Shown here: piece after piece, positions 5,062-58,766 of the stretch
How the letters are laid out: each line of letters begins with the position of its first letter
Numbering within the stretch: position 1 is the stretch's first letter
Assembly: GCA_902799185.1 (NCBI GenBank)
Contig: CADBZO010000010.1
Coordinates: 61,988 to 125,987, forward strand
Direction of reading: 5' to 3'
DNA from: an uncultured Bacteroidales bacterium
GTDB taxonomy: Bacteria > Bacteroidota > Bacteroidia > Bacteroidales > Paludibacteraceae
Length of the DNA: 64,000 bases
Program-made: the position numbers and the translations under genes
The notes under the pieces: model-generated
The model's database searches: none
Seen by the model: the letters and a program-made list of their open reading frames with translations, nothing else
Told to the model about the DNA's origin: nothing

Positions 5062-5562
5062 TTATTTATTTACACGGAAAGTGAAGTATTTCTGTCCGAA
5101 ATAGGAGAAGGCGACGGTGATGAGTGTGATGATCATCTTGGAGGGGGTTGGATACCACCCTATTATCTCGACGCATAGTTTGAGTCCGAAATAGTTTATA
5201 GCCAGGTTCACCGCCACAATCAACATATATCGTCCGAGCTGGCGGTAACTGTTGAGCCGGGAGGCAGTGAAGGTAACATATTTCTGTAGCCAGAATCCGG
5301 TGAGTAGCGTTATAGGAAAGACGATACAGAGGGTAGCGATGTGGGGGGTGAGGCAGAGGTTAAAGGTTAAAGGTGAAAGGTGAAAGTACACCAGGTCATG
5401 TCCAATAACAAAGTTATACAGGAAGAAGTAAAGCAGCCAGTCGAGTACGAGGTTTCCGCCTCCGCAAGCGGCATATCGAAAGAGCTGTTCCGGCATCCAT
5501 TTGGCGAACGGACGGTAAAAAAAATCAATGATTTGTGTGATTATTTGCGCTAATTTGTGCAT
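5062..5562 (-). CDS. GtrA-family membrane protein
   Basis: This 166-residue protein has four predicted membrane segments and GtrA features: FRYAACGGGNLVLDWLLYFF near residue 30, FWLQKYVTF near 95 and the end YFGQKYFTFRVNK. GtrA proteins are thought to flip lipid-linked sugars for polysaccharide or O-antigen glucosylation. Residues 60-69 (FHLSPLTFN) come from four heptamers of GGTTAAA/GGTGAAA type at 5358-5385 and fall in the loop between the second and third helices, which looks like an in-frame repeat insertion. It is divergent from rsmA. Confidence 0.85.
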   Translation of the reverse strand: MHKLAQIITQIIDFFYRPFAKWMPEQLFRYAACGGGNLVLDWLLYFFLYNFVIGHDLVYFHLSPLTFNLCLTPHIATLCIVFPITLLTGFWLQKYVTFTASRLNSYRQLGRYMLIVAVNLAINYFGLKLCVEIIGWYPTPSKMIITLITVAFSYFGQKYFTFRVNK

Positions 5563-5576
5563 TTTATGCGATTTTT

Positions 5577-5613
5577 CTTGCGTAATTCAAAAAAAAGTAG
5601 TACTTTTGCAGCC
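5577..5613 (+). promoter_or_regulatory. Vegetative promoter upstream of rsmA
   Basis: CTTGCGTAATTC is followed by an A-tract and GTACTTTTGCAGCC. The predicted start near 5616 leaves a leader of about 130 nt before rsmA. Confidence 0.75.
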
Positions 5614-5745
5614 GCAAAAGCCGAGTGCTTGTATGATTTGCGCACATGCCGGTATTCAAATCGGGCACAAAATTAGTAATAATTTTTTAATTGCGCAAAT
5701 ATTTTTAACTAAAATTAAACAGTATGGACGATTATCACCCTAACA

Positions 5746-6588
5746 ATGCAACAAGTACATGCCAAAAAATTTCTGGGGCAGCACTTTTTGACGGACTTGA
5801 CAGTCGCCCGCAGAATTGCTGAAACAATAACCCCACCCCAGCCCTCCCTACAAGGGAGGGAGAAAGCTATTCGGGTAATCGAAGTGGGACCCGGGATGGG
5901 TGTTCTGACCCAGTATCTCCTTAAAAATCCTGATATACAACTCACGGCGATAGAGATCGACCGCGAGAGTGTGGCGTATCTCAGAGAGTGGTACCCGGAG
6001 TTGGATCTGGTGGAAGGCGATTTTCTGAAGATTGACCTGAACAAGATGATTCCCGAAGGCGAGTTCAACGTCATCGGCAATTATCCATACAATATATCCA
6101 GCCAGATTTTCTTCAAAGTACTGGAATACAAAGACCGTATTCCCGTGTGCTCAGGTATGATCCAGAAAGAAGTGGCGGAACGTATAGCTTCCAAGCCCGG
6201 CAAGAAGGCATACGGCATCCTGTCCGTTCTTCTGCAAGCCTATTATGATATAGAATATCTGTTCACGGTAGATGAACATGTGTTCAATCCTCCTCCAAAA
6301 GTCAAGTCGGCAGTCATCCGCATGACGCGTAACAAACGACGACGGTTGGAGTGCGACGAAGCACTGTTCAAGACCGTCATCAAGACAGCTTTCAACCAGC
6401 GGCGAAAACAGATGAGAAACTCGTTACGGAGTTTAGTCGAAAGTCAAAACGGGACAGAGCCTGTCGAAAGCTCAGAACGATTAGAATGGTTCCTGACTCG
6501 AAGGCCGGAACAGCTATCTGTTGAAGAATTTATTGAACTAACCACTTTAATTGAACAAAGCCATGTCGGAAATCAAGATATTCTATAA
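5746..6588 (+). CDS. rsmA: 16S rRNA dimethyladenosine transferase (RsmA/KsgA)
   Basis: This 280-residue enzyme dimethylates two adjacent adenosines near the 3' end of 16S rRNA using S-adenosylmethionine. Motifs are KKFLGQHFLTD at the N-terminus, VIEVGPGMGVLTQYLL for the SAM loop, and NYPYNISSQIFF for the catalytic NxPY. The C-terminal part has FNQRRKQMRNSLR and FLTRRPEQLSVEEF. Residues 28-39 (ITPPQPSLQGRE) come from a GC-rich palindrome inserted just before the SAM-binding strand, where homologues run directly from helix to strand. A second odd segment is SQNGTEPVESSERL near residue 230. The stop overlaps the corA start by 26 bp. Confidence 0.95.
   Translation: MQQVHAKKFLGQHFLTDLTVARRIAETITPPQPSLQGREKAIRVIEVGPGMGVLTQYLLKNPDIQLTAIEIDRESVAYLREWYPELDLVEGDFLKIDLNKMIPEGEFNVIGNYPYNISSQIFFKVLEYKDRIPVCSGMIQKEVAERIASKPGKKAYGILSVLLQAYYDIEYLFTVDEHVFNPPPKVKSAVIRMTRNKRRRLECDEALFKTVIKTAFNQRRKQMRNSLRSLVESQNGTEPVESSERLEWFLTRRPEQLSVEEFIELTTLIEQSHVGNQDIL
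5828..5862. repeat. In-frame GC-rich palindromic element inside rsmA
   Basis: An ACCCCACCCC block is followed by CCCTCCCTacaAGGGAGGG, a hairpin. It encodes ITPPQPSLQGRE in rsmA. Near-identical sequence, in reverse orientation on the plus strand, is in tsaE at 24352-24386, and its core recurs at 9123-9152. Confidence 0.8.
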
Positions 6589-8618: not shown

Positions 8619-9586
8619 CGGAGCAACAGAACAACGGGCAGATGGTCCGAGAAACCGTTTTGGTAACGGAAACCGTTGAAGGTACGTTTTGGCTTTATAC
8701 CCAAGTATTTCTCATCTGTCTCTTGAATCCATTCAGCATCGTAAATATATACGGTGCTGTTTTTTTGTAAGTTATCGGATATATAGAACTGGTCGAGACA
8801 AGTCCAGCGTCCCTGATACTTGTGCGTGCCATAGTTTTCGACTTTTGACTTTTGACTTTCTACTACCATCCGGTTTATCAAACCTTTCAGGTTATCTTTT
8901 GGTTCGCCGTTCATATCGCCCATAACGATGATTTTTGCGTCCGAGTGAACAGCATAAACGCTGTCTATAGCGGTCTGCAACACGTCTTTCACGGTCCTGC
9001 GTTTCCATTCGCTCTCTGCCGCTCCGCCCCGTTGAGAAGGCAAGTGGCAGACGAACAAATGCAAGGTGTCTTTCCTGTCCACCTGTGCACATACATAGAG
9101 GATATCGCGGGTTATCAGTTTCTCCTCCCTTGAGGGGAGCGCCGGGGTGATGTGTCTTGTATTGATGGTGTCAATGCGTGCTTTTTTATATATCAGGGCG
9201 ACGTCTATTCCTCGCGGGTCCTTGCTCTCGTAATGTACAAAATCATACTCGCCCCGCCGGAGGGTATAACATAGTTTGCGCAGACAGGCAGCATTCTCGA
9301 CCTCCTGCAGACCCGCTATATCCACCCCATCCCACTCGCCTATATTCGTCAGCACACGTGCGATGTTCTCCACTTTGCGTTCATACCGCGAGTAGCTCCA
9401 CCGCCTCTCGCCATCCGGCGTCCATTCCAGGTCTTCTTTCGGTTCTCCTGCTACGCTGTCATGCGCAGGATGAAAGAGGTTTTCCACATTATAACTGACG
9501 ATGCGTAACTGCTCGGCAGATATAGTGTTTATACCTGCAAGAGCCATGATAATTATCCATGAAACGCTAAGAATAGCCGTTTTCAT
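8615..9586 (-). CDS. Secreted endonuclease/exonuclease/phosphatase-family protein
   Basis: This 323-residue protein has an N-terminal signal peptide (residues 1-24, ending TISAEQ) and the fold's motifs in order: IVSYNVENLF, AGLQEVE, HLPSQRGG, VMGDMN and FSDHLPVV. Such exported proteins act as metal-dependent nucleases or phosphodiesterases, substrate unknown. Two in-frame small-repeat insertions are visible: residues 145-155 (HITPALPSREE), from a palindromic element at 9123-9152, and residues 242-251 (VESQKSKVE), from heptamers at 8835-8862. It lies 12 bp downstream of an esterase gene on the same strand and probably shares its promoter. Confidence 0.85.
   Translation of the reverse strand: MKTAILSVSWIIIMALAGINTISAEQLRIVSYNVENLFHPAHDSVAGEPKEDLEWTPDGERRWSYSRYERKVENIARVLTNIGEWDGVDIAGLQEVENAACLRKLCYTLRRGEYDFVHYESKDPRGIDVALIYKKARIDTINTRHITPALPSREEKLITRDILYVCAQVDRKDTLHLFVCHLPSQRGGAAESEWKRRTVKDVLQTAIDSVYAVHSDAKIIVMGDMNGEPKDNLKGLINRMVVESQKSKVENYGTHKYQGRWTCLDQFYISDNLQKNSTVYIYDAEWIQETDEKYLGIKPKRTFNGFRYQNGFSDHLPVVLLLR
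8835..8862. repeat. Heptamer repeat (CTTTTGA type) inside the endonuclease-family gene
   Basis: Four consecutive 7-bp units (TTTTCGA, CTTTTGA, CTTTTGA, CTTTCTA) are in frame and encode VESQKSKVE. A nearly identical set occurs in sufS at 11548-11582. Confidence 0.8.
9123..9152. repeat. Palindromic element in the endonuclease-family gene
   Basis: The core CTCCCTTGAGGGGAG is identical over 15 bases to the tsaE copy at 24352-24386, and is followed by CGCCGGGGTGATG in place of GTTGGGTGGGGTTAT. It encodes HITPALPSREE in frame. Confidence 0.65.
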
Positions 9587-9598: not shown

Positions 9599-10390
9599 TT
9601 ATTTGAATATCTTAGGCAAGAAGCGGCAGAGGTAGTCCTGCCAGTTGTCCCAAGTGTGACCTCCGGCGGATTCGTAATAGGTATATTCGAGATGGTTTGC
9701 CTCCAGCCAACGGCGGTATTCTTCGTTGAAACTATATAAAAAATCATCCTTGCCTATACCTATCCAGTAAAGCTTGGTGGTGTTCATCTGTTCTTTTACT
9801 TCCTCCTCCCAGTTGTCGTATATTAGGTTTGGGTCTAATGGAAGGATAGCTGCCGAAAAAAGACCCACATACGCAAACTGTCCGTGCAGATGGTGGGATA
9901 CGTGCATGGTGTGAAATCCTCCCATGGAGAGACCGGCTATAGCGCGTTGGTAGGGCTCGTTGCTGATCGGATATTTGCTTTCCGCTTCTGCCATAAACTG
10001 CGGGAATAGCCTCTCCCACTCTCCTGTCATCGCATTGGCTTTCTCCTCGTCCGAAGTGGGTCTGGCGGGACAGTTGTCCGGCATGATAACCACCATCTCT
10101 TTCACCTCGCCGGCTTGCAGCAGCGAGTCCATGATCTCCACCAGCCTACCCTGTTTGGTCCAGTCGTCCTCGTTGCCGTACATGCCGTGCTGCAGATAGA
10201 GGACAGGGAACTTTGTACATGGTGCATTGTCCCTTTGTACATTATCAGGCAGATAGACGCAGCAGGGCGTGCCGTTCAATGTGTCGCGCACTACTGTTCC
10301 TGCGTGCAGAGGTTCAGCACCCTTTGGGCTGCAACTACTTAAGATTCCTGCGGTCAAAAAAGCCGCAGCGATGTAGAGAATGTTTTTCAT
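9599..10390 (-). CDS. Lipoprotein esterase (esterase D/feruloyl esterase-like, alpha/beta hydrolase)
   Basis: This 263-residue protein has a lipoprotein signal peptide (lipobox ILSSC, Cys20) and the PF00756-type esterase core: VLYLQHGMYGNEDDW, the nucleophile elbow GLSMGGFHT and GGHTWDNW with the catalytic His near the end. Such enzymes deacylate plant-polysaccharide esters or short-chain esters, and the anchor points to a periplasmic or surface role. Residues 49-60 (DNVQRDNAPCTK) come from heptamers at 10213-10246 of the same type as an intergenic tract near 13.18 kb. The gene is driven by the minus-strand promoter at 10511-10545. Confidence 0.85.
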   Translation of the reverse strand: MKNILYIAAAFLTAGILSSCSPKGAEPLHAGTVVRDTLNGTPCCVYLPDNVQRDNAPCTKFPVLYLQHGMYGNEDDWTKQGRLVEIMDSLLQAGEVKEMVVIMPDNCPARPTSDEEKANAMTGEWERLFPQFMAEAESKYPISNEPYQRAIAGLSMGGFHTMHVSHHLHGQFAYVGLFSAAILPLDPNLIYDNWEEEVKEQMNTTKLYWIGIGKDDFLYSFNEEYRRWLEANHLEYTYYESAGGHTWDNWQDYLCRFLPKIFK

Positions 10391-11257: not shown

Positions 11258-11301
11258 GTCGAAAGACAAAAGACCGCTTCGCTCAAAGTAGAAAGTAGAA
11301 A

Positions 11302-11330
11302 GAACGGCAACCGGAAGGCTGCCGTTTTTT
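11302..11330. terminator. Hairpin terminator shared by hsp20 and sufS
   Basis: AACGGCAACC pairs with GGCTGCCGTT around a short loop and is followed by TTTTTT on the plus strand. On the minus strand AAAGAAC also gives some U's, so it may serve both convergent genes. Heptamer-like AGTAGAA copies precede it. Confidence 0.85.
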
Positions 11331-11334: not shown

Positions 11335-12615
11335 TTAGCCGAGCATCATAATTGCTTTCTTCAGCGCTGCGATGAAAGCATCCACATCCCCCTTGTCGTT
11401 ATACAGACCGAATGACACCCGCACCGTTCCCGGCACGCCCAGTTCGTCAATCAGCGGTTCGGCACAGTGGTGTCCCGTACGGACCGCCACGCCCTGCTGG
11501 TCCAGCAATGTGCCGATATCAAAAGGATGGATCAGCCCTTCCGATGGCTTTTGACTTTCGACTTTGGGCTTTTGACTATTATATACGTTAAAACTGATGA
11601 CTCCGGCTTTGGGTTGTCCGGCAGCATAGACATGTACGCCCTCAATGGCTGCTAACTGCTGCTCGCAGTAGTCCGTCAGTTCACGTTCGTGCGCCTCGAT
11701 GGATTCCCAACCGATGGATTGCATGTACTCAATCGCTTTGTGCAGCGCATAGGAGCCTACGAAATTAGGTGTTCCGGCTTCGAACTTATAGGGCAAGTCG
11801 TTATAGGTCGTACCCGACCAACGGACATGGTTGATCATCTCGCCTCCACCCTCATGCGGCGGCAGTTGTTCCAGCCACTCACGCTTGCCGTACAGTACGC
11901 CGATGCCCGTCGGACCGTACATCTTATGTCCCGAAAACGCGAGGAAGTCGCAATCCAATGCCTGCACATTGACCTGCATATGCGGCACACTCTGTGCACC
12001 GTCAATGCACACCGGTATGTTGCGTTCGTGCGCGAGATGAATGATCTCCTCTACCGGATTGATGATTCCCAGCACATTGCTCACCTGCGCCACGGAGACC
12101 AGTTTCGTCTTTTCGTTCAGAAGCCCCTTGAAAGCCTCTATGTCGAGCGTTTGGTCTGCCTGTAGGGGAATATGCCGCAGCACCGCTTTCTTGCGCTCAC
12201 AGAGCATTTGCCACGGCACAATGTTGGAATGGTGCTCTACGGCGGAGACGATAATCTCGTCACCCTCGTGAATGTACGGTTCCTCCTGTAATTCGTAATT
12301 TTTAATTTTTAATTCTCCAATGGCGAACGCCAACGTATTGATACTGTCCGTCGTGCCTTTGGTGAAGATAATCTCGTCGCTACTCTCCGCTCCGATGAAT
12401 GCTGCCACAGCTTTTCGTGCCTCCTCATGTTTCATCGTTGCTACTTGGCTCAGGTGATGCACGCCGCGGTGGATGTTGCTGTTCCAATGGGTGTAAGCCT
12501 CCGTGATAGCATCTATCACCGCCTGCGGCTTCTGGCTCGTAGCGGCATTATCCAGGTACACCAACGGGCGTCCGTGTACCTTCTCGTTCAATATAGGGAA
12601 ATCGGTTCTGTTCAT
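11335..12615 (-). CDS. sufS: SufS-type cysteine desulfurase
   Basis: This 426-residue PLP enzyme removes sulfur from cysteine as persulfide for Fe-S cluster assembly. Motifs are YLDNAATSQKP at the start, EHHSNIVPWQ, DGAQSVPHMQV, the PLP lysine in FSGHKMYGPTGIGVLYG, and the catalytic cysteine in RTGHHCAEPL. It is about 20 residues longer than usual because of two in-frame heptamer tracts. Residues 101-110 (LKIKNYELQE) come from 12289-12315, and residues 345-356 (YNSQKPKVESQK) from 11548-11582. No sufBCD genes are adjacent; it has its own promoter. Confidence 0.93.
   Translation of the reverse strand: MNRTDFPILNEKVHGRPLVYLDNAATSQKPQAVIDAITEAYTHWNSNIHRGVHHLSQVATMKHEEARKAVAAFIGAESSDEIIFTKGTTDSINTLAFAIGELKIKNYELQEEPYIHEGDEIIVSAVEHHSNIVPWQMLCERKKAVLRHIPLQADQTLDIEAFKGLLNEKTKLVSVAQVSNVLGIINPVEEIIHLAHERNIPVCIDGAQSVPHMQVNVQALDCDFLAFSGHKMYGPTGIGVLYGKREWLEQLPPHEGGGEMINHVRWSGTTYNDLPYKFEAGTPNFVGSYALHKAIEYMQSIGWESIEAHERELTDYCEQQLAAIEGVHVYAAGQPKAGVISFNVYNSQKPKVESQKPSEGLIHPFDIGTLLDQQGVAVRTGHHCAEPLIDELGVPGTVRVSFGLYNDKGDVDAFIAALKKAIMMLG
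11548..11582. repeat. Heptamer repeat (CTTTTGA type) inside sufS
   Basis: Units CTTTTGA, CTTTCGA, CTTTGGG, CTTTTGA and a partial fifth are in frame. The matching tract in the endonuclease-family gene encodes a similar Ser-Gln-Lys-rich peptide. Confidence 0.8.
12289..12315. repeat. Heptamer repeat (TAATTTT type) inside sufS
   Basis: Units TAATTCG, TAATTTT, TAATTTT and TAATTC encode LKIKNYELQ in frame. The same heptamer type separates pfkB from plsC (45180-45214) and forms the end of the nfeD-like gene (58746-58766). Confidence 0.8.
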
Positions 12616-12719: not shown

Positions 12720-13318
12720 TCTTAAATTTGCGCCGGGTAGGAGTTTTCCCCCGAGAGAAAGAAAAAAGAAAAAGAAAAGAACCAAAAGAATAATAAAAAA
12801 GAAAGCCCAGCCCCGCCACCACCGCAGGTGGTAGCTACCACCTTTAAAAATAAAGGTGGTGGTACTGCACATACGCGCGAGGAGATGCCGGTGGCGTGGC
12901 GGTCGGTCGGACTATTTTTAAAGAAGATTTTTAGTTCTATGTGCCGATTTTCAGGATGTCCTTCGAACTTTGTCAGGTCGTTCCCGGGACATGGTCCCGT
13001 GATGGTCTTGTGCTTCATTCACCTTACCATCACGGGACCATCTTCCGAGAAACACCTAACGAAAGTACAGTCAGAACATAAGCGGAGTACCAGTAAACAC
13101 TCTGATAGAAGTTGCCAATTATTAAGATTCCTCAATAACGCAAACAGGCGGACATCTCTGCCCGCCTGATTACTTTGTACATTGTACATTGTCCCTTTGT
13201 ACATTACTTAACTTTCTGTCTTTTCCCGCGGAATTATATCCCGCTCGCCGCACGGTGCATTAGAGAAGCGAACATTCCGCTTTATTAGCGTTTATGCGCC
13301 GCTCATTTATGTGCGGCT
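12720..13318. other. 600-bp non-coding stretch with several hairpins
   Basis: No credible gene is present; open frames here read through purine runs and inverted repeats. It holds an A/G-rich tract (12755-12805) and a perfect 18-bp palindrome at 12826-12843 that overlaps a second hairpin at 12837-12860, so only one can form. It also holds a perfect 16-bp inverted repeat (12991-13006 with 13026-13041, 19-base loop) and a TTGTACA-type heptamer tract at 13174-13208. A GCCGC hairpin ends the stretch at 13299-13318, just past the adhesin stop. It may encode a structured RNA or be a decayed repeat element. Confidence 0.5.
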
Positions 13319-45214: not shown

Positions 45215-45215
45215 A

Positions 45216-45938
45216 ATGAAAAGCATACTAAAACCCTTTTATATCATTTATCAGTATCTGATAGCATGGCCGATATTGGTGGTACTGACTGCGTTTACAG
45301 CATTTTTTACGATATGCACGGTGCGCTGGAAGAATTCGGAGTGGGTGCATAAGGAGCAGCAGTTCTGGTCAAGGTCGTTTTTCCGGCTGATGTTTCTGCC
45401 GGTGACGGTAGATGGCGAAGAACATATCCGTCCGGGTCAGAGTTATGTGTTTGTAGCGAACCATCAGTCGATGTTCGATGTGTGGCTGGTTTATGGCTGG
45501 CTTCCGGTGATCTTCAAATGGCTGATGAAAGCGGAGTTGCGTAAGGTGCCGTTCATCGGTTCGGGATGCAAGGCAGCAGGGCACATCTTTGTTGATCGCC
45601 GTAACGCCAAGGCTGCTCTGGAGAGCCTCAAGGAGGTGGAGAAGCAGCTGGTAGGCGGTGTGAGTACGGTGATTTTCCCCGAAGGAACGCGTTCGCTGAA
45701 CGGCGAGGTAGGCCGATTCAAGCGAGGTGCTTTCCAGATAGCATGGGACTTGGGGCTGCCGGTGGTACCGCTGTCACTGGACGGATGTTTCGAGGTCTTG
45801 CCGAAAGGCAAGCCGTTCGTACATCGCCATCCGGTACACATGCATATCGGCGAACCGATTGATCTGAAGCAGTTTGCCGAACCCAATGAGGCAATCGAGG
45901 CGGTGCGTAATGCCGTCATCTCCGGCCGCCGGCAATAA
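45216..45938 (+). CDS. plsC: 1-acyl-sn-glycerol-3-phosphate acyltransferase
   Basis: This 240-residue membrane acyltransferase makes phosphatidic acid. It has an N-terminal hydrophobic helix, the catalytic block VANHQSMFDVWL (HX4D), AAGHIFVDRR, and the acceptor block IFPEGTRSLNGEVGRFKRGA, then VVPLSLDGCFEVLPKGK. The ATG at 45216 directly follows the heptamer tract. It is one of a run of short-spaced plus-strand genes. Confidence 0.93.
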   Translation: MKSILKPFYIIYQYLIAWPILVVLTAFTAFFTICTVRWKNSEWVHKEQQFWSRSFFRLMFLPVTVDGEEHIRPGQSYVFVANHQSMFDVWLVYGWLPVIFKWLMKAELRKVPFIGSGCKAAGHIFVDRRNAKAALESLKEVEKQLVGGVSTVIFPEGTRSLNGEVGRFKRGAFQIAWDLGLPVVPLSLDGCFEVLPKGKPFVHRHPVHMHIGEPIDLKQFAEPNEAIEAVRNAVISGRRQ

Positions 45939-45975: not shown

Positions 45976-46413
45976 ATGTATTCCGATCCTAAAAACTGTC
46001 TCTATTGTACCAATAATGAGACCCTTCATGACTTGATGATTGAAATCGCGCACCTGCGTGTGTCGCGCGCGTTTGTATTCAAGGAGCAGACCTATCACGG
46101 CCGCTGTCTGGTAGCTTATGACGGGCATGTGAATGACCTGAATGAGCTGAGTGACGAGCAGCGTAATCTGTTCATGGCCGATGTGGCGGACGTTACCCGC
46201 GCGATGCAGAAGCTCTTCCAACCGGAGAAGATCAACTACGGCGCCTATTCCGACAAACTGAGCCATCTGCATTTCCACCTGGCTCCCAAATACGTGGACG
46301 GTCCGGATTACGGAGGCACGTTCCAGATGAATCCGGGTAAGGTCTATCTGACAGACGAGGAGTACGCCGAGATGGTAGCGGCGATGAGAAGAGAGTTGAA
46401 AGGTGAAAAGTGA
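45976..46413 (+). CDS. HIT-family nucleotide-binding protein
   Basis: This 145-residue histidine-triad protein carries the motif LSHLHFHLAPKYVDGPDYGG near its C-terminus and the conserved N-terminal CLYCTNNETLHDLMIEI. HIT proteins hydrolyse nucleotide phosphoramidates or dinucleotides. The C-terminus LKGEK and the stop TGA are encoded by heptamers. Confidence 0.88.
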   Translation: MYSDPKNCLYCTNNETLHDLMIEIAHLRVSRAFVFKEQTYHGRCLVAYDGHVNDLNELSDEQRNLFMADVADVTRAMQKLFQPEKINYGAYSDKLSHLHFHLAPKYVDGPDYGGTFQMNPGKVYLTDEEYAEMVAAMRRELKGEK

Positions 46414-46426
46414 AAATTGAAAGGTG
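46396..46426. repeat. Heptamer repeat (TGAAAGG type) joining the HIT gene and holB
   Basis: Units TTGAAAGG, TGAAAAG, TGAAAAT, TGAAAGG supply the HIT stop and the GTG start of holB. Confidence 0.8.
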
Positions 46427-48681: not shown

Positions 48682-49136
48682 GGAAGCGTATCATCATAGG
48701 GATTCTCGGGCTGGCAGCAGTGGCGCTGAGCGCCTGCTCCTCAAGGACGGTGTACAGCCGTTTTATCCCGATTCCATCGGAACAATGGCACATGGATTCC
48801 ATAGCGCGTTTTGACTATGCCATCTCCGACACGACGACGGATTACAGGGTACTGGTGTATGTACGTCACACGGAGCGGTATCCGTATCAGAACATGTGGC
48901 TTTTCTTAGGCGACAGTACCCGTCAGGACACGATAGAGTTCTATCTGGCGGACGACCGCGGACGGTGGCTGGGGGATCAAAGACACGGATTCATCGAGAT
49001 GCCGGTGCTCTATGAGGAGCATGTGCATTATGCCGATACGGGTATGTACCGTCTGGAGATAGCGCACGGCATGCGCGACAGCCTGCTGCGCGGCATCACC
49101 GATATAGGCGTGGAAGTCGTGAAAAATGAAAGGTGA
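48678..49136 (+). CDS. gldH: Gliding motility lipoprotein GldH homologue
   Basis: This 152-residue lipoprotein (lipobox LSAC, Cys20) has the GldH layout: ARFDYAISDTTTDYRVLVYV, YPYQNMWLFL and YRLEIAHGMRDSLLRGITDI followed by GVEVVKNER. GldH is needed for gliding and surface motility in Flavobacterium and persists in non-motile Bacteroidales. The final KNER and stop come from a TGAAAGG heptamer tract. Confidence 0.88.
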   Translation: MRKRIIIGILGLAAVALSACSSRTVYSRFIPIPSEQWHMDSIARFDYAISDTTTDYRVLVYVRHTERYPYQNMWLFLGDSTRQDTIEFYLADDRGRWLGDQRHGFIEMPVLYEEHVHYADTGMYRLEIAHGMRDSLLRGITDIGVEVVKNER

Positions 49137-49155
49137 AAGGTGAAAGGTGAAAGGA
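49125..49155. repeat. Heptamer repeat (TGAAAGG type) between gldH and trmB
   Basis: Four consecutive TGAAAGG units, preceded by TGAAAAA, run from the end of gldH to the trmB start. Confidence 0.85.
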
Positions 49156-49156
49156 G

Positions 49157-49954
49157 ATGGGGAAGAACAAGCTAAAGAAATTTGCAGAGATGGAGACGTT
49201 CAGCAACGTCTTCCAGTGCGGAGCGAGTGAGATGTCTTATGCCAGGATGGCGCAAGAGGGACGCGAGCCGGTGGATCCGATAGCCGGCCATTGGCGGGAG
49301 CGGTATTTCCATAACGACCATCCTATCGTGCTGGAGTTAGGTTGCGGCCGAGGGGAATATACGGTAGGGCTCGCCAGGCGCTATCCGGAGAAGAACTTCA
49401 TCGGCGTGGATATCAAAGGCGCGCGTATGTGGGCAGGAGCGAAAGAGGCGGAACAGGAAGGTCTGAGGAACGCTGCTTTCCTGCGGACGAACATAGAGGT
49501 CATTACGGCTTTTTTCGCCGCCAATGAAGTAGATGAGATATGGATCACGTTCTGTGACCCGCAGATGAAAAAAGCCACCAAGCGTCTGACCAGCACCTAT
49601 TTCATGCAGCGGTATCACCGTATCGTGAAGCCCGGCGGCCTGATCCATCTCAAGACGGACAGCCCCTTCCTCTATACCTATACCACGGAGATGCTGCGGC
49701 TGAACCCTTATCCGGTAGTAGCCCGTACGGAGGATCTGTATGGCGAGCAGGCGGTGAAGGAAAGTACGCCGTCGGTTTTCTCCGATGCCGCGGCGTTACA
49801 GACGCATTATGAGAAACAATGGTTGGACAGAGGATTGACTATCAAGTATATAGAGTGGCAGTTGGTGGCGATGGAGCAATGGGAAGAGCCTACCATAGAG
49901 ATTGAGAAAGACAGTTATCGTTCGTACGGACGCAATTATAACAGTCCGCAATAA
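49157..49954 (+). CDS. trmB: tRNA (guanine-N7-)-methyltransferase TrmB
   Basis: This 265-residue SAM enzyme methylates G46 of tRNA. Motifs: [60 protein letters not shown] and [20 protein letters not shown]. It is longer at the N-terminus than the E. coli enzyme, as is common in Bacteroidota. A sirtuin gene follows after 13 bp. Confidence 0.93.
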
Positions 49955-53513: not shown

Positions 53514-53541
53514 GATGATTTATGATTTCGGATTTATGATT
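53514..53541. repeat. Heptamer repeat (TATGATT type) in the DUF5606 leader
   Basis: GATGATT, TATGATT, TCGGATT, TATGATT lie between promoter and start codon. Confidence 0.8.
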
Positions 53542-53649: not shown

Positions 53650-55149
53650 TTAACGCTCGCTGGGCAGATGACCGAAGAAGTCTTTGTAGCATTTCGTGAA
53701 ATAACCGGCGGAGGAGAAGCACAATTCCATGGCTATCTGCTGGATGGTCATGTCTGTCGTGTGCAGCAACTCGTCGGCGCGGATGAGCCGGCGCTCACGG
53801 ATATAATCGAGCGGACCTTTGCCGGCTACCGTCTTGACACGGCGGAAGAGCTGGGTGCGGCTTAACTGCAGGATGGATCCTAAATACTCTACATTCAGGT
53901 TGGGATTCGTCAGATGGGCGTCCACCACTTCTCTCAGCCGCTCGGAGAAAGCCTCGTCCCGGCGGGAGAGTTGGATAGCCTCCTGTACGTTCTCCAACTG
54001 CGGCACCACTTCGTTTTTGATCTTGCTCTGCACACTCCTCAACCGGAAGTATTGATACATCTGGACGGAGAAGAACATCACCAGCACTACTATCAGGCAT
54101 ATCACCAGCAGCCGGTGTTCTCTGCGCATCTTGTGCCACTGGGTGTCCGATCTTAGCTGGACGATACGGAGGGTCTCGAGGTCATGCAGGCGCTCGTGGC
54201 TTTGCATCAGCATGGCTCTGGCGGCCACAGCGTCAATCATCGTGGTCTCCAGAATCGTGTCATGTACAAACGGCTCACCGGCTAAGATATGCGCAGCGGT
54301 AGCTATCACCAGATCGCCGCGGGAGGCGTACGTGGCCGTGCACTCAATCACGCCGTCCTCGATAGCCTGCAAGCCGACCTGGATGCCATCTACACCCATG
54401 ATAGGGATTGATGATTTATGGTTGGTGATGGATGATTGATGATTTGCCACCGCCTCGGCGGCGCCGACTGCCATCAGGTCGTTCTGCGCCACAATGACGT
54501 GGGGGCAAGGGTGGGACGTGAGATATTGCGCTACGGCTTCGCTGGCGTTCTCCTTGTGCCAATAGCCGTGAATGGAGTGTACCTCTACCGGCATCTCCTC
54601 CAAACCGTCCATCAGACCTTTATGACGGAGGGTAGCCGGGGTGGAACCTTCCAGTCCCATGACCTCCAGTACCACAAAAGGCTTGTCCTTGGTATAGCGG
54701 GTCTGACGGATAGACAGTTGCTCCTGAACCCATTCTGCCATGAGGCTTCCTACTTTGTAGTTGTCGCCTCCGATGAAGGCTGTCCATTCGTCTCCGGTCA
54801 CTCTTCGGTCGGCCACGATGACGGGGATGCCGGCCCGGTAGGCGCGCGTGACGGCAGGCTTGACCTCCTCCGCTTCGTTAGGACTGACAATCAGCAGATC
54901 CACACGCTCCGCGATGAACGAGTCTATCTGGGCGCATTGCAGCTCGTTGCTGCCGTGGGCTATGCGCGTAGAGAGCTTCATGTCCGGATGCAGCAGGAGC
55001 TCGCGTGCCATCTCCTGGTTCATCTTTTGCCGCCAGGCGTCGTCCAGACACTGGCTCACTCCGATATGGTACTCTTCTTTAGCCGGAGAACAAGCATAAA
55101 ACACTCCTGCAAGGAGAAAAAGAAACGAGTGAAGATAGATGTTTTTCAT
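53650..55149 (-). CDS. Hybrid periplasmic-binding sensor with AraC-type DNA-binding domain
   Basis: This 499-residue one-component regulator begins with a lipoprotein-like signal (FLLAGVFYACSPAKEE). A periplasmic sugar-binding domain of the RbsB/LacI type follows (IGVSQCLDDAWRQKMNQEMA, PVIVADRRVTGDEW, PHVIVAQNDLMAVGAAEAV). It has a membrane helix near 346-368 and a C-terminal AraC HTH (LTNPNLNVEYLGSILQLSRT, DYIRERRLIRADELLHTTDM, ELCFSSAGYFTKCYKDFFGH). It should sense a periplasmic sugar and act on cytoplasmic DNA. No sugar-utilisation genes are adjacent. Residues 234-249 (ANHQSSITNHKSSI) come from in-frame heptamers at 54405-54450. ATG 55149 is used. Confidence 0.88.
   Translation of the reverse strand: MKNIYLHSFLFLLAGVFYACSPAKEEYHIGVSQCLDDAWRQKMNQEMARELLLHPDMKLSTRIAHGSNELQCAQIDSFIAERVDLLIVSPNEAEEVKPAVTRAYRAGIPVIVADRRVTGDEWTAFIGGDNYKVGSLMAEWVQEQLSIRQTRYTKDKPFVVLEVMGLEGSTPATLRHKGLMDGLEEMPVEVHSIHGYWHKENASEAVAQYLTSHPCPHVIVAQNDLMAVGAAEAVANHQSSITNHKSSIPIMGVDGIQVGLQAIEDGVIECTATYASRGDLVIATAAHILAGEPFVHDTILETTMIDAVAARAMLMQSHERLHDLETLRIVQLRSDTQWHKMRREHRLLVICLIVVLVMFFSVQMYQYFRLRSVQSKIKNEVVPQLENVQEAIQLSRRDEAFSERLREVVDAHLTNPNLNVEYLGSILQLSRTQLFRRVKTVAGKGPLDYIRERRLIRADELLHTTDMTIQQIAMELCFSSAGYFTKCYKDFFGHLPSER
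54405..54450. repeat. Heptamer repeat (GATTGAT/GATTTAT type) inside the hybrid regulator gene
   Basis: GATTGAT, GATTTAT, GGTTGGT, GATGGAT, GATTGAT and GATTTGC are consecutive and in frame. The same heptamers are in the mreB leader. Confidence 0.8.
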
Positions 55150-55171: not shown

Positions 55172-56884
55172 TTATACCGGTTTGATATCCTGTGCATTCA
55201 TCTGTAGCGTAGTACGGCCGTGGTAGGTGTTCTCCTCCAGATAGAAGCATACATCTACGGCATTGCCGTTCTGCAGATGTGCGGCTTTGTCGCCCTGCCC
55301 GAATGCGATACCGTCCATGGCTACTGTCCGGTCGGTGAGGTCCAGATGGAGATGTCTCCCTTCGCTCACGGCACGGGTGTTGCGGTTGTTGATCAGGTGG
55401 CGGCAGAGGAACAGGGGACGCTCGTTGCCGGGGCCGAAAGGTTCCAGACATTGCAGGATCTTGTACATCTTCCAGTTCATATCGCTCAGTTCCACCTCCG
55501 CTTCTATCTCCAGCGTAGGGCGCAACTGCTCCGGTGTGATATGTGCGGCTACGTATTCCTCGAAACGGCGTTTGAACTCCGGTAGGTCTGTCCGGTGCAT
55601 ACTCAGTCCCGCAGCGAACTTGTGTCCGCCGAAATTGGTCAGCAGGTCACGGCAGGAGTCGATGGCCGCATAGATATCGAAATCGCTGACAGACCGGGCG
55701 CTACCGCTGATGATATCGTCGTCTCCGGCGGTCAGGACGATGGTAGGCCGGTAGTAGGTCTCGGTCAGCCGGCTCGCGGCGATACCTACCACTCCCTTAT
55801 GCCAACCGGGAGAGAAGACGACAGTAGTAAATCTCTTCGGATTCATCGGATCTTTTTGCAGCTGTTCCAGTGCCTCATCCGTGGTCTTGGTGTCGAAATC
55901 CCGGCGGTCCTGGTTATAGGAGTCAATGTCTCTGGCAAACAGCAGAGCTGCCTCTGCGTCGTCGGTGATGAGAAGCCGTACTGCCTCAGCACCGCTCTTG
56001 ATACGTCCTGCCGCATTGATACGCGGACCAAACTTGAAGACCAGATCGGTCATCGTCACCGTCTTTCCGCCTATGCCCGCTATCTCCATGATGGCCTTCA
56101 TCCCTACGGAAGGCGAGGCGTTCAGCGCCCTCAGGCCGTAGAAAGCCAAGATCCTGTTTTCACCCGTGAGCGGCACTACATCCGAGGCGATAGACATCGC
56201 CAGAAGAGGGAGTAACCGGTATGTCTCCTGAGGGTTGATGCCGCGCCGTTGGGCATAAGCCTGCACCAGCTTGAAGCCTACGCCGCAACCGCTCAACTCC
56301 TTATAAGGATAGAGACAGTCGCTTCTTTTCATGTTCAGCACCGCTACGGCACGGGGGATCGTGTCACCGGGAGTGTGGTGGTCGCAGATGATGAAATCGA
56401 TGCCTATGCTGTTGGCGTACTCCATCTTGTCCACCGCTTTGATACCGCAATCGAGCGCGACGACGAGGCTGCACCCTTGCTCGCGCGCGGTGTCGATACC
56501 CTTGGTGGAGATACCGTAACCCTCGGTGTAGCGGTCGGGGATATAATAGACCAGGTTGTCCGTCTGCGTCTTGAGAAACGAATACATCAATGCCACCGCT
56601 GTCGTGCCGTCCACGTCATAGTCGCCATAGACCATGATACGCTCGTGGGTGTCTATGGCACGGCAGAGCCTGTCCACTGCGGTCGTCATGTCACGCATCA
56701 GGAAAGGGTCGTGCAGGCTCTCCAGCGAGGGACGTATGTACGCCCGCGCTTCGGCTGCCGTGCGGATGCCGCGTCCGGCTAAGATACGACCCGCCACCGG
56801 ACTGATATCCAGTTCGGCGCTCAGACGCTCGGCTGCGTGTTGCTCTTCCGGCGAAAGGGTTTTTATGTTCCACTTGATTTCCAA
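55172..56884 (-). CDS. recJ: Single-stranded-DNA-specific exonuclease RecJ
   Basis: This 570-residue DHH-family 5'-3' exonuclease works in recombination and repair. Motifs: MVYGDYDVDGTTAVALMYSF, the DHH in FIICDHHTPGDTIP, GVGFKLVQAYA, KFGPRINAAGRIKSG and the C-terminal GGHKFAAGLSMHRTD. Frame and alignment both require the start to be the TTG at 56884. An in-frame TGA lies two codons upstream and the next ATG is around residue 62. The TTG belongs to a CTCTCAA heptamer (GAGAGTT on the gene strand). Confidence 0.93.
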   Translation of the reverse strand: MEIKWNIKTLSPEEQHAAERLSAELDISPVAGRILAGRGIRTAAEARAYIRPSLESLHDPFLMRDMTTAVDRLCRAIDTHERIMVYGDYDVDGTTAVALMYSFLKTQTDNLVYYIPDRYTEGYGISTKGIDTAREQGCSLVVALDCGIKAVDKMEYANSIGIDFIICDHHTPGDTIPRAVAVLNMKRSDCLYPYKELSGCGVGFKLVQAYAQRRGINPQETYRLLPLLAMSIASDVVPLTGENRILAFYGLRALNASPSVGMKAIMEIAGIGGKTVTMTDLVFKFGPRINAAGRIKSGAEAVRLLITDDAEAALLFARDIDSYNQDRRDFDTKTTDEALEQLQKDPMNPKRFTTVVFSPGWHKGVVGIAASRLTETYYRPTIVLTAGDDDIISGSARSVSDFDIYAAIDSCRDLLTNFGGHKFAAGLSMHRTDLPEFKRRFEEYVAAHITPEQLRPTLEIEAEVELSDMNWKMYKILQCLEPFGPGNERPLFLCRHLINNRNTRAVSEGRHLHLDLTDRTVAMDGIAFGQGDKAAHLQNGNAVDVCFYLEENTYHGRTTLQMNAQDIKPV

Positions 56885-56939
56885 CTCTCAGCTCTCAACT
56901 CTCAACTCTCAACTATCAACTATCAACTATCAACTCTCA
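56883..56939. repeat. Heptamer repeat (CTCTCAA/CTATCAA type) between nitrilase and recJ
   Basis: Eight units fill the junction. They provide the last two codons and TGA stop of the nitrilase gene at one end and the TTG start of recJ at the other. Confidence 0.88.
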
Positions 56940-57712
56940 ACCACCTCATACTTGTCGGCTTCTTGCCATTGCGGGAGGACCTCGCGGAAATGCCGGAGTT
57001 TCTCAATGGACAGATCTACGATACGGGTCCCCTCCTCATAGTCCTCAAATCCCGCTACGTCGTGCAACCATGTGTCATAGGCTGCCGAATGGCCGTTATA
57101 GTCTAATTGCAGTCCGTCCGTACCTACCATGTTGACTCCTACTGCATAGCAGTGGTTCTCCGCTGCTCTTGCCGGCAGGAGCACGTCCCAGTACTGTATC
57201 CGGACCGTAGGCCAGCAGGCTACGCAGACCAGGATGTCATACATATTCTCCTTGTCCTGTCTCAGCCAGACCGGAAAACGGAGGTCATAGCATACCGCCA
57301 GACGGATCTTCACCCCGCGGTATTCGAAGATCGTACGTTGCTCTCCCGGACTGAAGAAATCCGCCTCGCCGCCGGAGCGGTACAGGTGGTGCTTGTCGTA
57401 GTACTGGGGGCTGTCGTCCGGGCGGAAGATGAACCCGCGGTTATGGAGCTTGCCCTGATCAGTGACCATCATCGAACCGATGATGGCTATCCGGTACGTA
57501 TCCGCCATATGCTGCAGTGCTATACTGCTCTCACCGGTGAGCCAGTCGTCGGCCAGACCCGGACGGTCGGTGCAAAAACCGGTGGTGAACATCTCCGGCA
57601 CAACGGCTATGTCTGCCTGACCGGCTATAGCCCGCAACCGCTCGTCCAACAGACCGAGGTTAGCCTTCGGGTTCGCCCACTCAATGGAATATTGAAGAAG
57701 TGCAATTCTCAA
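56930..57712 (-). CDS. Nitrilase-superfamily amidohydrolase (omega-amidase-like)
   Basis: This 260-residue carbon-nitrogen hydrolase has the Glu-Lys-Cys triad in VVPEMFTTGF, YDKHHLYRSGGE and LAVCYDLRFPVW, as in YafV/omega-amidase enzymes that hydrolyse 2-oxoglutaramate. The start MRIALLQYSIEWANPKANL is typical. It lies between floA and recJ, with heptamer tracts on both sides. Confidence 0.9.
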   Translation of the reverse strand: MRIALLQYSIEWANPKANLGLLDERLRAIAGQADIAVVPEMFTTGFCTDRPGLADDWLTGESSIALQHMADTYRIAIIGSMMVTDQGKLHNRGFIFRPDDSPQYYDKHHLYRSGGEADFFSPGEQRTIFEYRGVKIRLAVCYDLRFPVWLRQDKENMYDILVCVACWPTVRIQYWDVLLPARAAENHCYAVGVNMVGTDGLQLDYNGHSAAYDTWLHDVAGFEDYEEGTRIVDLSIEKLRHFREVLPQWQEADKYEVVES

Positions 57713-57757
57713 ATGTCAACTCTCAACTCTCAACTCTCAATTCTCAATTCTCAAATC
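57703..57757. repeat. Heptamer repeat (CTCTCAA/TTCTCAA type) between floA and nitrilase
   Basis: About seven units of the same family as 56883-56939 run from the nitrilase start to the floA stop. Confidence 0.85.
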
Positions 57758-58736
57758 ACTTCTTCGCTCCCTTCTTTTCGCCTCCTCCGGCTATCTGCTC
57801 GCGCATGGCGGTGTCCGCTTGCATGTTCTGCATCCGGTAATAATCCATGATGCCCAGGTTGCCGTTACGGAAAGCCTCTGCCATGGCCTGCGGCACGAGT
57901 GCCTCCGCCTCTATCACTTTGGCGCGCGCCTCCTGGGCCTTGGCTTTCATCTCCTGCTCGCTGGCTATTGCCATGGCACGGCGCTCCTCGGCTTTCGCCT
58001 GCGCGATGTTCTTGTCCGCATTGGCCTGGTCCATCTGGAGCTGGGCTCCGATGTTCTTGCCTACGTCAATATCGGCGATATCAATGGAGAGTATCTCAAA
58101 TGCCGTACCGTCATCCAGACCCTTGGAGAGCACTAATTTACTGATGGAATCGGGGTTTTCGAGTACTGACTTATGGCTCTCGGCGCTACCGATGGAGCTG
58201 ACGATGCCCTCGCCTACACGGGCGAGAATAGTGTCCTCTCCGGCACCTCCGACGAGCTGTCTGATGTTAGCGCGAACCGTTACGCGCGCTTTGGCGATAA
58301 GCTGGATACCGTCTTTCGCCACTGCCGTTACCGGAGGCGTGTCTATCACCTTCGGGTTCACGCTCATCTGAACGGCCTCGAATACATCACGGCCGGCAAG
58401 GTCGATGGCAGTGGCCATCTGGAATGGAAGCGTGATGCCGGCTTTGCTCGCCGAGACAAGGGCGTGAACCACGCGCTCTATATGTCCGCCGGCGAGGTAG
58501 TGAGCCTCCAGACTGTCACGTTTGACATCTGTCAGACCGGCCTTGTGAGCCTCAATCATGCAGTTCACAATCTTGGTAGGAGGCACCTTGCGGATACGCA
58601 TCAGGAAAAGCTGTACCAAACTGATATGCACGCCGCTCACGACTGCGTTGATCCATAGCATGAAAGGTACGTAATAGAAGAAAATGCACAGCGCTACAAA
58701 AATCAGCGCAAGCAAAACAAATGTAATAGGATCCAT
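57756..58736 (-). CDS. floA: Flotillin-like protein FloA
   Basis: This 326-residue membrane-microdomain scaffold starts with a hydrophobic hairpin ([20 protein letters not shown]). An SPFH-like domain follows ([60 protein letters not shown]) and an Ala/Glu-rich flotillin region ([20 protein letters not shown]). It lies immediately downstream of an nfeD-like gene, the standard pairing. Confidence 0.94.
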
Positions 58737-58745
58737 GAGTATTTG

Positions 58746-58766
58746 TAATTTTTAATTTTTAATTTC
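58746..58766. repeat. Heptamer repeat (TAATTTT type) at the end of the nfeD-like gene
   Basis: Three TAATTTT units form the last codons (EIKN) and the TAA stop of the nfeD-like gene and the gap to floA. Confidence 0.75.

What the first reader, a model, noticed from the sequence alone, without database searches (positions are those of the whole stretch)
5358..58766. Heptanucleotide tandem repeats scattered at gene junctions and, in frame, inside conserved genes
At least eighteen sites carry 3-8 imperfect copies of a 7-bp unit. Each site has its own heptamer, but a limited set of types recurs (TGAAAGG, AATTACG/TAATTTT, CTTTTGA, GATTTGA, GATTGAT, CTCTCAA, TTGTACA). Intragenic copies are in gtrA-like (5358-5385), endonuclease (8835-8862), esterase (10213-10246), sufS twice, MBL hydrolase (21564-21612) and the hybrid regulator (54405-54450). 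All keep frame and add short Ser/Gln/Lys/Asn-rich peptides. Heptameric STRR repeats are known in cyanobacteria. A Bacteroidales counterpart that also enters coding sequence suggests an active generating mechanism rather than drift.
Basis: partly seen in the sequence, partly recalled or inferred. Interest (0 to 1): 0.85.

Follow-up and report, generated by a model that had tools for sequence, protein, structure and literature searches.

The report
Seven-base repeats scattered through rumen bacterium
This gut bacterium carries hundreds of short tandem repeats with a seven-base unit, at gene junctions and in frame inside ordinary genes; they are a dense, many-typed form of a repeat class known from other bacteria, and relatives show them changing by whole units and, for one subset, apparently travelling with a small hairpin element.

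Summary
Confirmed: the window has 19 period-7 arrays against 0.23 expected; 855 kb of the genome (about a third) has 212 against 1-8, with 54 unit types where random intergenic heptamers give about 183. 66 of 212 lie inside genes. By its relatives the organism is a rumen/gut Paludibacteraceae. Against a sister species (about 90% identical) 62 arrays could be compared: 25 positions carry an array in both (not always the same units), 13 keep only a unit word, 24 have neither. Non-zero length differences inside genes are multiples of 3 in 10 of 11 cases, outside in 15 of 38. Several sites differ by whole units (-7 to +49), as slippage would give. A small repertoire, two-site unit 'alleles' and one composite in mostly unrelated flanks argue that arrays or units are also copied about. 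New here: a genus-restricted ~84-bp element whose two arms are heptamer arrays (at least 3 units on both sides in 24 of 27 copies), with empty sites. The sister sample has arrays but no such element, so it is not the sole source. Heptanucleotide repeats in genes and over stop codons are published: a new variant of a known kind. Mechanism partly shown.

The parts
2903..2928 (.). array TTGTTAT/TAGTTAT between two minus-strand genes; identical in the sister species
5354..5387 (.). array TGAAAGG (coding strand CTTTCAC) in frame in GtrA-like gene 5062-5562; peptide FHLSPLTFNLC; shared with sister, shorter by 6 residues in two other homologues
8835..8864 (.). array TTTTGAC in frame in Exo_endo_phos_3 gene 8615-9586; peptide SQKSKVEN; shared with sister, missing, shorter or different in the ten non-sister homologues
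10213..10246 (.). not an array by the rule used (period-7 identity 56%); by eye a decayed copy of the dispersed composite ATGTACAAAGGGACAATGTACAATGTACAAAG in the esterase gene
11284..11305 (.). array AAAGTAG between convergent genes; sister has a shorter segment with other units
11545..11565 (.). array CTTTTGA/CTTTCGA in frame in sufS (second site; SQKPKVESQKPS); shared with sister, no insert in 18 of 20 same-genus homologues
12288..12317 (.). array TAATTTT/TAATTCG in frame in sufS (first site; LKIKNYELQEEP); +33 nt against sister; G012 carries another heptamer and G002 and G018 a palindromic-repeat peptide at this place
13170..13197 (.). array TTGTACA: copy of the dispersed composite GGGACAATGTACAATGTACAAAG; no sister alignment here
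21565..21605 (.). array ATTTGAG/ATTTGTG in frame in metallo-beta-lactamase-fold gene 21153-22223; same length but several substitutions in the sister
23244..23279 (.). array TCAATCA at the junction of gene 23265-23918 (LolD-like by eye) and gene 22227-23240; contains the upstream stop codon; shared with sister; other species have other heptamers, 11-mers, 15-mers, palindromes or nothing here
34874..34898 (.). array TGATTGA upstream of gene 33801-34820 (MreB-like by eye); no array in sister
43893..43920 (.). core of a TGAAAGG array (43882-43936) near tRNA-Asn; segment 49 nt (7 x 7) longer than in the sister
45177..45217 (.). array AATTACG/AATTAAG over the stop codon of gene 44178-45185; relative G042 (L134) has an equally long near-perfect GAATTGA array, the sister a different heptamer
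46394..46423 (.). array TGAAAAG/TGAAAGG over the stop codon of gene 45976-46413; no array in sister
49120..49158 (.). array TGAAAGG over the stop codon of gene 48678-49136 and up to the start codon of the next gene; no array in sister
53515..53535 (.). array ATGATTT; sister keeps one unit TGATTTA (24 nt shorter)
54424..54444 (.). short array GATTGAT in frame in periplasmic-binding/AraC-type regulator 53650-55197 (NHQSSITNHKSS); no sister alignment here
56882..56942 (.). array CAACTCT/CAACTAT covering the gene junction; 44 matches genome-wide, itself included; no array in sister; relative L155 carries the TGTACAA composite at this junction
57709..57759 (.). array CAACTCT/CAATTCT at the gene junction; sister keeps one unit CAATTCT (47 nt shorter)
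58740..58767 (.). array TAATTTT over the stop codon of minus-strand ORF 58752-59093; no array in sister

Best explanation
The sites are members of one dense, polymorphic population of heptanucleotide simple-sequence repeats (the LSSR/STRR class), about 250 arrays per Mb in the sampled third of this genome. Step 1 (inferred): an array or a short run of units is placed at a new site, largely by copying units already present elsewhere in the genome; one likely vehicle is a small hairpin-forming element with heptamer arms. Some arrays instead start from one or two local unit-like words. Step 2 (shown as a pattern): arrays differ between relatives by whole 7-base units, as expected of replication slippage. 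Step 3 (shown as a pattern): selection keeps those at gene junctions, where the stop-rich strand is favoured if the array covers the upstream stop codon, and those in tolerant places inside proteins, where the frame stays open and net length is a multiple of 3. The same places are filled again and again by unrelated repeats. The peptides are then tolerated by-products. Why the step is 7 bases is not explained here.
For: Period 7: 212 arrays against 2-47 at the other periods tested and 1-8 in Markov copies. Repertoire: 54 canonical units among 212 arrays against mean 182.5 (minimum 171) in 300 random draws of intergenic heptamers. Discrete units: TAATTNN units are CG 60, TT 44, with one-step intermediates CT 6 and TG 4. 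A composite of unlike heptamers, GGGACRATGTACRATGTACRAAG, stands 17 times in the genome and in 14 of 61 genus genomes including this one, mostly in unrelated flanks. Slippage: +35, +35, +21, +21, +42, +14, +7, -7, +49 between sister orthologues; a two-unit (14-nt) difference between two close species (L136/L137); 14 of 49 non-zero length differences are multiples of 7, 7 expected. Seeds: one unit left in the sister at 53515 and 57709. Selection: 10 of 11 in-gene differences divisible by 3 against 15 of 38 outside; of 66 arrays covering the upstream stop, 51 have more stops on the sense strand and 12 more on the antisense strand, against 19 and 23 of the other 61. Refilled places: sufS loop, TsaE N-terminus and lolD-gldB junction, L240/L247.
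Against: Dispersal of free-standing arrays is inferred: 81 of 424 array flanks, against 23 of 400 random controls, match another place in the sampled genome, so about four in five flanks show no repeated neighbour that could have carried the array. A small repertoire could also come from sequence-dependent slippage. Within single arrays substitutions are not packed into fewer columns than chance (187 against 189 expected). In 17 ungapped orthologous arrays substitutions are not confined to the variable unit positions. The composite was sought with a pattern that fixes all but four bases, and some of its copies share flanks (L043 twice; L045/L174; L163/L182; L176/L178) or sit in paralogous C-terminal tails. 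Many differences from the sister are replacements of unequal length, not clean unit steps, and segments with two arrays count twice. The shared/seed/absent classes are rough: 23244 was scored 'seed' although it differs from the sister by one base. Polarity of gain and loss was not established for most sites; gene calls come from a home-made caller.
Confidence: 0.6

Rival explanations
1. Purely local slippage: each array grew in place from a chance one- or two-unit word, with no copying between sites; the recurring types reflect which heptamers slip well and which local words (stop codon plus A-rich junction) are common.
For: Single units at orthologous sites in array-less relatives (53515, 57709, junction after gene 44178-45185) and whole-unit length steps; the 7-base preference was published for other bacteria with a polymerase-contact hypothesis (passages of PMC4679880 and PMC4692102 seen).
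Against: 54 unit types where about 183 are expected from local words; the same composite of unlike units in mostly unrelated flanks and several species; 24 of 62 sites show neither array nor unit word in the sister; different heptamers at the same coding site with 96-97% identical flanks (L240/L247).
Confidence: 0.2
2. A dedicated mobile system makes and places the arrays: a hairpin (MITE-like) element whose terminal repeats are heptamer arrays, or its unseen enzyme, seeds arrays across the genome, and free-standing arrays are its remnants.
For: 27 copies of an 84-bp core (some orthologous between species), 25 with at least 2 and 24 with at least 3 heptamers on both sides (random positions: 4 of 3000 reach 3 on one side); CAAT/ATTG kept at nearly every 7-base step of the arms in 25 aligned copies; arms pair in folds of the 10 own copies; four empty sites in the sister lack core and both arms, one with a possible 5-6 bp duplication; 10 copies in 855 kb here, none in 800 kb of the sister.
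Against: The sister has 140 arrays per Mb without the element; 54 of 61 genus genomes lack it although the genus has arrays; L231 shows no clear target duplication; two of the 27 copies have one unit on the left side; no compensatory pair changes; no autonomous partner was found, and beyond one weak Y1_Tnp match none was searched for.
Confidence: 0.15
3. The arrays are kept because the sequence has a job, for example repeated protein- or ribosome-binding motifs between genes; in-gene copies are accidents.
For: 127 of 212 arrays lie at co-directional junctions; fixed and variable unit positions in the CAAHTNY and TAATTNN classes (chi-square 51.6 and 55.9, 6 d.f.); a translational role was proposed for TAACTGA repeats (abstract and passages of PMC4679880).
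Against: Co-directional junctions hold 88% of the non-genic arrays but also 73% of the intergenic bases, a modest excess; unrelated heptamers, 11-mers, 15-mers, palindromes or nothing at the same junction in related species; 17 ungapped orthologous arrays change at about 0.11 per base against 0.09 in their flanks; one third are in genes.
Confidence: 0.05

Closest known systems
TAACTGA heptamer direct repeats of Beggiatoaceae, Cyanobacteria and five Bacteroidetes (MacGregor 2015, PMC4679880; abstract and passages seen)
   Same: Tandem heptamers, mostly intergenic, in forward orientation overlapping the upstream stop codon, in reverse orientation inside ORFs; patchy across lineages; Paludibacter propionicigenes has two sets.
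   Different: There one heptamer dominates and its one-base neighbours are rarely repeated; here TAACTGA arrays are absent from the 855-kb sample (0 of 212) and 54 units occur. There in-ORF copies lie mainly at the periphery of proteins; here they are spread along genes (12, 12, 20, 12, 10 by fifths).
GGGAATC / GGGGA(C/T)T heptamers of Xanthomonas and Nostoc (PMC4692102; passages seen)
   Same: Heptameric, genome-wide, close to or over the stop codon of the upstream gene, length-variable between close species; in the Nostoc strain studied only 68% intergenic.
   Different: G-rich and quadruplex-forming; here 3 of 212 arrays have a unit with GGG or CCC and many types coexist.
Long simple sequence repeats of 5-11 nt, heptanucleotides the commonest class (Mrazek et al. 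2007, seen only as cited in PMC4679880), and cyanobacterial STRR repeats (recalled; not read)
   Same: Unit length, excess over chance, slippage proposed as the cause.
   Different: The organism group, and the in-frame insertion shown here against array-less homologues.
Rickettsia palindromic elements and bacterial MITEs (recalled; only search listings seen)
   Same: Small repeats that enter coding sequence in frame (compare the palindromic peptides seen in TsaE); small hairpin elements with inverted termini.
   Different: The heptamer arrays themselves are direct, not inverted; the 84-bp element has heptamer arrays as termini.

Membership tests
Heptanucleotide long simple sequence repeats (LSSR/STRR class) | tandem 7-nt units in excess of chance | tested here: met
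   19 against 0.23 in the window; 212 against 1-8 in 855 kb
Heptanucleotide long simple sequence repeats (LSSR/STRR class) | length differences of whole units between close relatives | tested here: met
   14 of 49 non-zero differences are multiples of 7, 7 expected
TAACTGA repeats (MacGregor 2015) | unit TAACTGA | tested here: not met
   0 of 212 arrays and no exact double copy in 855 kb
G-quadruplex heptamers of Xanthomonas/Nostoc | G-rich unit GGGAATC or GGGGA(C/T)T | tested here: not met
   0 of 212 arrays; GGG or CCC in 3 of 212 units
MITE (for the 84-bp core with heptamer arms, not for the arrays in the window) | terminal inverted repeats | tested here: met
   arms of outward heptamers, at least 3 units on both sides in 24 of 27 copies, pairing in folds of the 10 own copies
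MITE (for the 84-bp core with heptamer arms, not for the arrays in the window) | target-site duplication at empty/filled pairs | tested here: inconclusive
   possible 5-6 bp duplication at L044, none clear at L231; L307 and L040 have replaced bases at the site
MITE (for the 84-bp core with heptamer arms, not for the arrays in the window) | autonomous transposon with the same ends | not tested
   only the Y1_Tnp family was sought in the own genome, one weak match; its ends were not compared
Structured RNA family | match to an Rfam model or compensatory pair changes | tested here: not met
   no Rfam match at gathering level on the core copies in L038, L040, L044, L231; 0 of 21 predicted pairs with changes on both sides in 25 aligned copies

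The most novel reading that the evidence does not exclude
An active, copy-based system spreads ready-made heptamer arrays: a library of discrete 7-base units is written into new sites, including conserved genes in frame, and a genus-restricted hairpin element whose termini are themselves heptamer arrays is one product or carrier of that system. Heptamer repeats elsewhere (cyanobacteria, Beggiatoaceae) might then be the residue of similar writing rather than of slippage alone.
Probability: 0.2. Interest if true: 0.85.

Novelty: new variant of a known kind. Interest (0 to 1): 0.5.

Why it matters
Why bacterial simple repeats of 5-11 bases prefer a 7-base unit, and why only in scattered lineages, is to my knowledge still open (a polymerase hypothesis of 2007 is cited in PMC4679880). 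A genus with dozens of sequenced species (46 named loci at 73-99% UvrC identity), up to about 250 arrays per Mb, empty sites that can be read, and unequal densities between species (248 and 140 per Mb in the two sampled genomes; 0-8 arrays per locus elsewhere) makes birth, growth and loss of such arrays countable. It also shows how short non-coding repeats donate new peptides to conserved enzymes (SufS, TsaE, a nuclease), which matters for annotation of gut MAGs.

Tried and rejected
Ancestral peptides: rejected for SufS; 15 of 19 readable same-genus homologues have no insert at the first site and 18 of 20 none at the second, and the best solved SufS homologue (5vpr) has gaps at both. Not tested beyond the sister for the MBL-fold and regulator genes (the MBL alignment came out blank). 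Chance or composition: rejected by Markov and codon-shuffle controls. Assembly artefact: unlikely; independent assemblies share arrays at the same bases. RNA family: no Rfam match on the core and no covariation. Purifying selection on fixed unit positions: suggested by within-array variation but not borne out between species (17 ungapped arrays only). The idea that the 84-bp element explains all arrays: rejected, because the sister has arrays without it. Plasmid and phage collections (one copy as query) and viral contigs (one exact pattern): no match to the element. An indel-length spectrum from pairs of genus loci was too thin (88 clean gaps); the BLAST gap spectrum against the sister was fragmented, so anchored comparison was used. 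In one search only two candidates per genome were scored, so its 56 of 395 positive genomes is a presence test, not a count.

Dropped before counts: the genus set of 46 loci was drawn by UvrC identity; L097, L098 (66%) and L107 (short, labelled Bacillota) were left out. Two window arrays (13170, 54424) had no sister alignment. The esterase site is not an array by the rule used. Two of the six empty-site pairs (L233, L238) were too diverged to read. Two of the 27 element copies, those with short left arms (L296:1502, L298:1502), were left out of the alignment and so. Names such as LolD-, GldB-, MreB- and KsgA-like are read by eye from translations; only eight proteins were checked against Pfam.


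Full report
WHAT WAS CHECKED. Tandem Repeats Finder and own scans show that the window is full of short arrays with period 7. At >=13 of 14 matches there are 13 clusters with period 7 and 0-2 with periods that are not multiples of 7; 20 order-3 Markov copies of the window give none at period 7. At >=12 of 14 matches there are 19 arrays; 100 order-4 Markov copies give 0.23 on average, at most 2. Of the named intragenic sites, 10213-10246 is not an array by this rule (period-7 identity 56%) and 54405-54450 is weak (64%); the first looks like a decayed copy of a dispersed composite described below.

WHERE IT COMES FROM. The window lies in a 2.43-Mb, 55-contig genome, 86.7% complete. A UvrC search of named genomes gave 79 loci; 46 of them, at 73-99% identity, I took as the same genus: uncultured Bacteroidales/Paludibacteraceae MAGs, many from rumen. 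I sampled 855 kb of the own genome (window plus 40 stretches). It holds 212 arrays (248 per Mb), median 33 nt, longest 88 nt. The 46 genus loci hold 72 in 846 kb, and 17 of 46 have none; two more distant loci hold 1 in 44 kb, seven other Bacteroidales loci 1 in 106 kb, and 23 Flavobacteriia loci 9 in 419 kb, no more than their period-6 count of 12. The CAACTCT type was found in 56 of 395 genomes drawn from the phylum (presence only). The spectrum has a second, smaller peak at 11 and its multiples.

WHERE THE ARRAYS SIT. A home-made codon-usage gene caller (about 91% coding) puts 66 of 212 arrays inside genes, 127 between co-directional genes, 13 between convergent and 5 between divergent genes, 1 at an edge. 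Per base, non-coding DNA is about twenty times richer (my arithmetic), yet 73 arrays lie wholly inside called genes where one codon shuffle gives 1. In-gene arrays are spread along genes (12, 12, 20, 12, 10 by fifths). Of the 127 co-directional junction arrays, 66 contain the upstream gene's stop codon, and of these 51 have more stop codons on the sense strand and 12 more on the antisense strand; the other 61 show no bias (19 against 23). In genes the coding strand is the stop-poorer one in 37, the stop-richer one in 7, equal in 22 (all frames counted; the frame used is open). This is what random orientation followed by selection against run-on or truncated proteins would leave.

ARE THE PEPTIDES ANCESTRAL? 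For SufS, no. It carries two: LKIKNYELQEEP and SQKPKVESQKPS. At the first place 15 of 19 readable same-genus homologues have no insert; G002 and G018 have a palindromic-repeat peptide (KPTPTPSLKGGE), G012 another heptamer peptide (WKMDNGKWKI), G008 a few extra residues. At the second, 18 of 20 have none; G018 has a longer array peptide and G009 an unrelated insert. Nine members of the order lack both. The best solved homologue (5vpr) has gaps at both places. In the endonuclease the peptide SQKSKVEN is missing, shorter or different in the ten non-sister homologues, and two non-sister GtrA homologues lack six residues. The TsaE N-terminus carries a palindromic-repeat peptide in the window and eight relatives, a heptamer peptide in L057, L065, L066 and L081, and little or nothing in most of the rest. 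Against this, the sister species shares four of the five in-gene window arrays that could be compared, so these are older than that split. Such places are filled repeatedly by unrelated repeats.

WHAT HAPPENS BETWEEN CLOSE SPECIES. RUG12032 (G041) is a sister: 84-85% identical to the window over 41-61 kb and 91-96% over most aligned parts of 2-35 kb, with a stretch at 99-100%. Of 19 window arrays 17 could be compared: six are shared, nine have no array in the sister, and two positions carry different arrays (11284, 45177). Over 232 kb aligned at 89.8% mean identity, 62 arrays could be compared: 25 of these positions carry an array in the sister too (not always the same units), 13 keep at least one unit word without an array, 24 have neither; the classes are rough, since 23244, one base different, fell among the 13. 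Many differences are exact unit steps: +49 at 43893, +35 twice in L039, +21 twice in L040, +42 at L240:840, +14 at L236:15243, +7 and -7. Two other close species differ by two units (14 nt) in one junction (L136/L137). At 57709 the sister keeps the single unit CAATTCT; at 53515 the single unit TGATTTA. In all, 14 of 49 non-zero length differences are multiples of 7 where 7 would be expected; a few segments hold two arrays and count twice. Inside genes 10 of 11 non-zero differences are multiples of 3 (4 of 11 multiples of 21); outside, 15 of 38 (2 of 38 multiples of 21). Junctions turn over: between gene 23265-23918 (LolD-like by eye) and the next one different species have TGATTGA arrays, TGAAAGG arrays, 11-mers, 15-mers, palindromes or nothing; the junction under the window's CAACTCT array carries the TGTACAA composite in L155.

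WHY LOCAL SLIPPAGE ALONE IS NOT ENOUGH. Heptamers drawn at random from this genome's intergenic DNA give about 183 types in 212 draws (minimum 171 in 300 trials); the arrays show 54. Units behave as discrete alleles: among TAATTNN units CG occurs 60 and TT 44 times, the one-step intermediates CT and TG 6 and 4 times. A composite of unlike heptamers, GGGACRATGTACRATGTACRAAG, occurs 17 times in the genome and in 14 of 61 genus genomes including this one, with no match for the reversed control pattern in the genomes listed. Its flanks are mostly unrelated, but several pairs of copies share flanks, some lie before a C-terminal 'LRDGQLYI' tail and so spread partly by paralogy, and the search pattern itself fixes all but four bases. 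At one coding site with 96-97% identical flanks this genome has an AAAAGTC array and the sister the TGTACAA composite. These facts say that arrays or units are also copied between sites. Against it: 81 of 424 array flanks, against 23 of 400 controls, match elsewhere in the sample, so most free-standing arrays show no carrier; sequence-dependent slippage could also shrink the repertoire; and tests for a conserved motif disagree, with variation placed at particular unit positions across arrays but not packed within arrays (187 against 189 columns) nor between species.

AN ELEMENT WITH HEPTAMER ARMS. Three long insertions against the sister (141, 153 and 178 bp) share a core of about 84 bp with heptamer arrays on both sides. 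In 27 copies from this and other species, some of them orthologous, 25 have at least two and 24 at least three outward heptamers on both sides, 14 of 27 exactly four and four by my matching rule; random positions reach three in 4 of 3000. In the 25 copies that I aligned (the two with short left arms left out) the arms keep CAAT/ATTG at nearly every 7-base step. The arms pair with each other in folds of the 10 own copies, but no predicted pair shows compensatory change. Four empty sites in the sister lack core and both arms: L044 and L231 cleanly, L307 and L040 with replaced bases; L044 suggests a 5-6 bp duplication, L231 none. The element occurs in 7 of 61 genus genomes, in none of the other 294 genomes drawn from the order, and gave no match in plasmid and phage records or, as one exact pattern, in viral contigs. 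No copy was found in the window. The sister sample has 112 arrays in 800 kb and no copy, so the element is at most one carrier. The name MITE-like is mine; no enzyme is known for it.

COMPARISON WITH THE LITERATURE. In PMC4679880 (abstract and passages seen) TAACTGA heptamers in Beggiatoaceae, cyanobacteria and five Bacteroidetes, Paludibacter among them, overlap upstream stop codons in one orientation and lie in ORFs in the other; mobility is discussed without a mechanism, and Mrazek 2007 is cited for heptanucleotides as the commonest class in most genomes and a polymerase-contact hypothesis. PMC4692102 (passages seen) describes G-rich heptamers in Xanthomonas and Nostoc that overlap stop codons and vary in length, 68% of them intergenic in one Nostoc. 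Neither unit type forms arrays in the 855-kb sample. Ten searches of the held library listed no paper whose title or opening abstract concerns such repeats in this genus; most subscription journals are not held. The class is known; the many-typed density, the spread through genes, the orthologue comparisons and the heptamer-armed element are the additions.

VERDICT. Observation confirmed and extended; interpretation partly supported. Shown: excess, repertoire, non-ancestral insertion (SufS, endonuclease), whole-unit length differences, frame and stop selection, refilled places, heptamer-armed element. Inferred: copying of units between sites, and slippage as the enzyme-level cause. Unexplained: why 7 (and 11).

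Noticed in passing
window about 24349-24390 (TsaE) and about 5825-5860 (KsgA-like by eye): Palindromic repeat peptides [11 protein letters not shown] and TPPQPSLQGRE in frame in conserved genes; at the TsaE place some species have heptamer peptides instead.
   Followed up: partly
window 36031-36086, 4949-4982; L058:12963, L094:13001: Second period peak at 11 bp (and 22, 33), with its own recurring units.
   Followed up: no
window 45936-45970: 15-bp unit TAAATGACCAAATAG; this segment of the query gave many further short matches, seen in all ten genus genomes searched, in a capped list.
   Followed up: no
window 1797-1882: 9-bp array TTTCGTAGT/TTTACGTAG in the 5' part of ORF 301-1890.
   Followed up: no
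window 36363-36599: 81-bp unit repeated 2.9 times at 96% matches.
   Followed up: no
window 13319-18436: 1705-aa BspA-type leucine-rich repeat protein with 69-bp DNA repeats and a C-terminal sorting-like tail.
   Followed up: no
window against L093 and L143-L152: Mosaic divergence from the sister RUG12032: 99-100% at 18.7-19.8 kb, about 95-96% at 20-35 kb, 84-85% at 41-61 kb, which suggests recombination.
   Followed up: no
L044:8434-8508: Rfam RF04319 BTncRNA_FopS match in this genome.
   Followed up: no
L035, L232, L236, L156, L157, L172, L179: The TGTACAA composite sits in the linker just before a C-terminal 'KVLRDGQLYI'-like tail in several paralogues (some read by eye from the DNA).
   Followed up: partly
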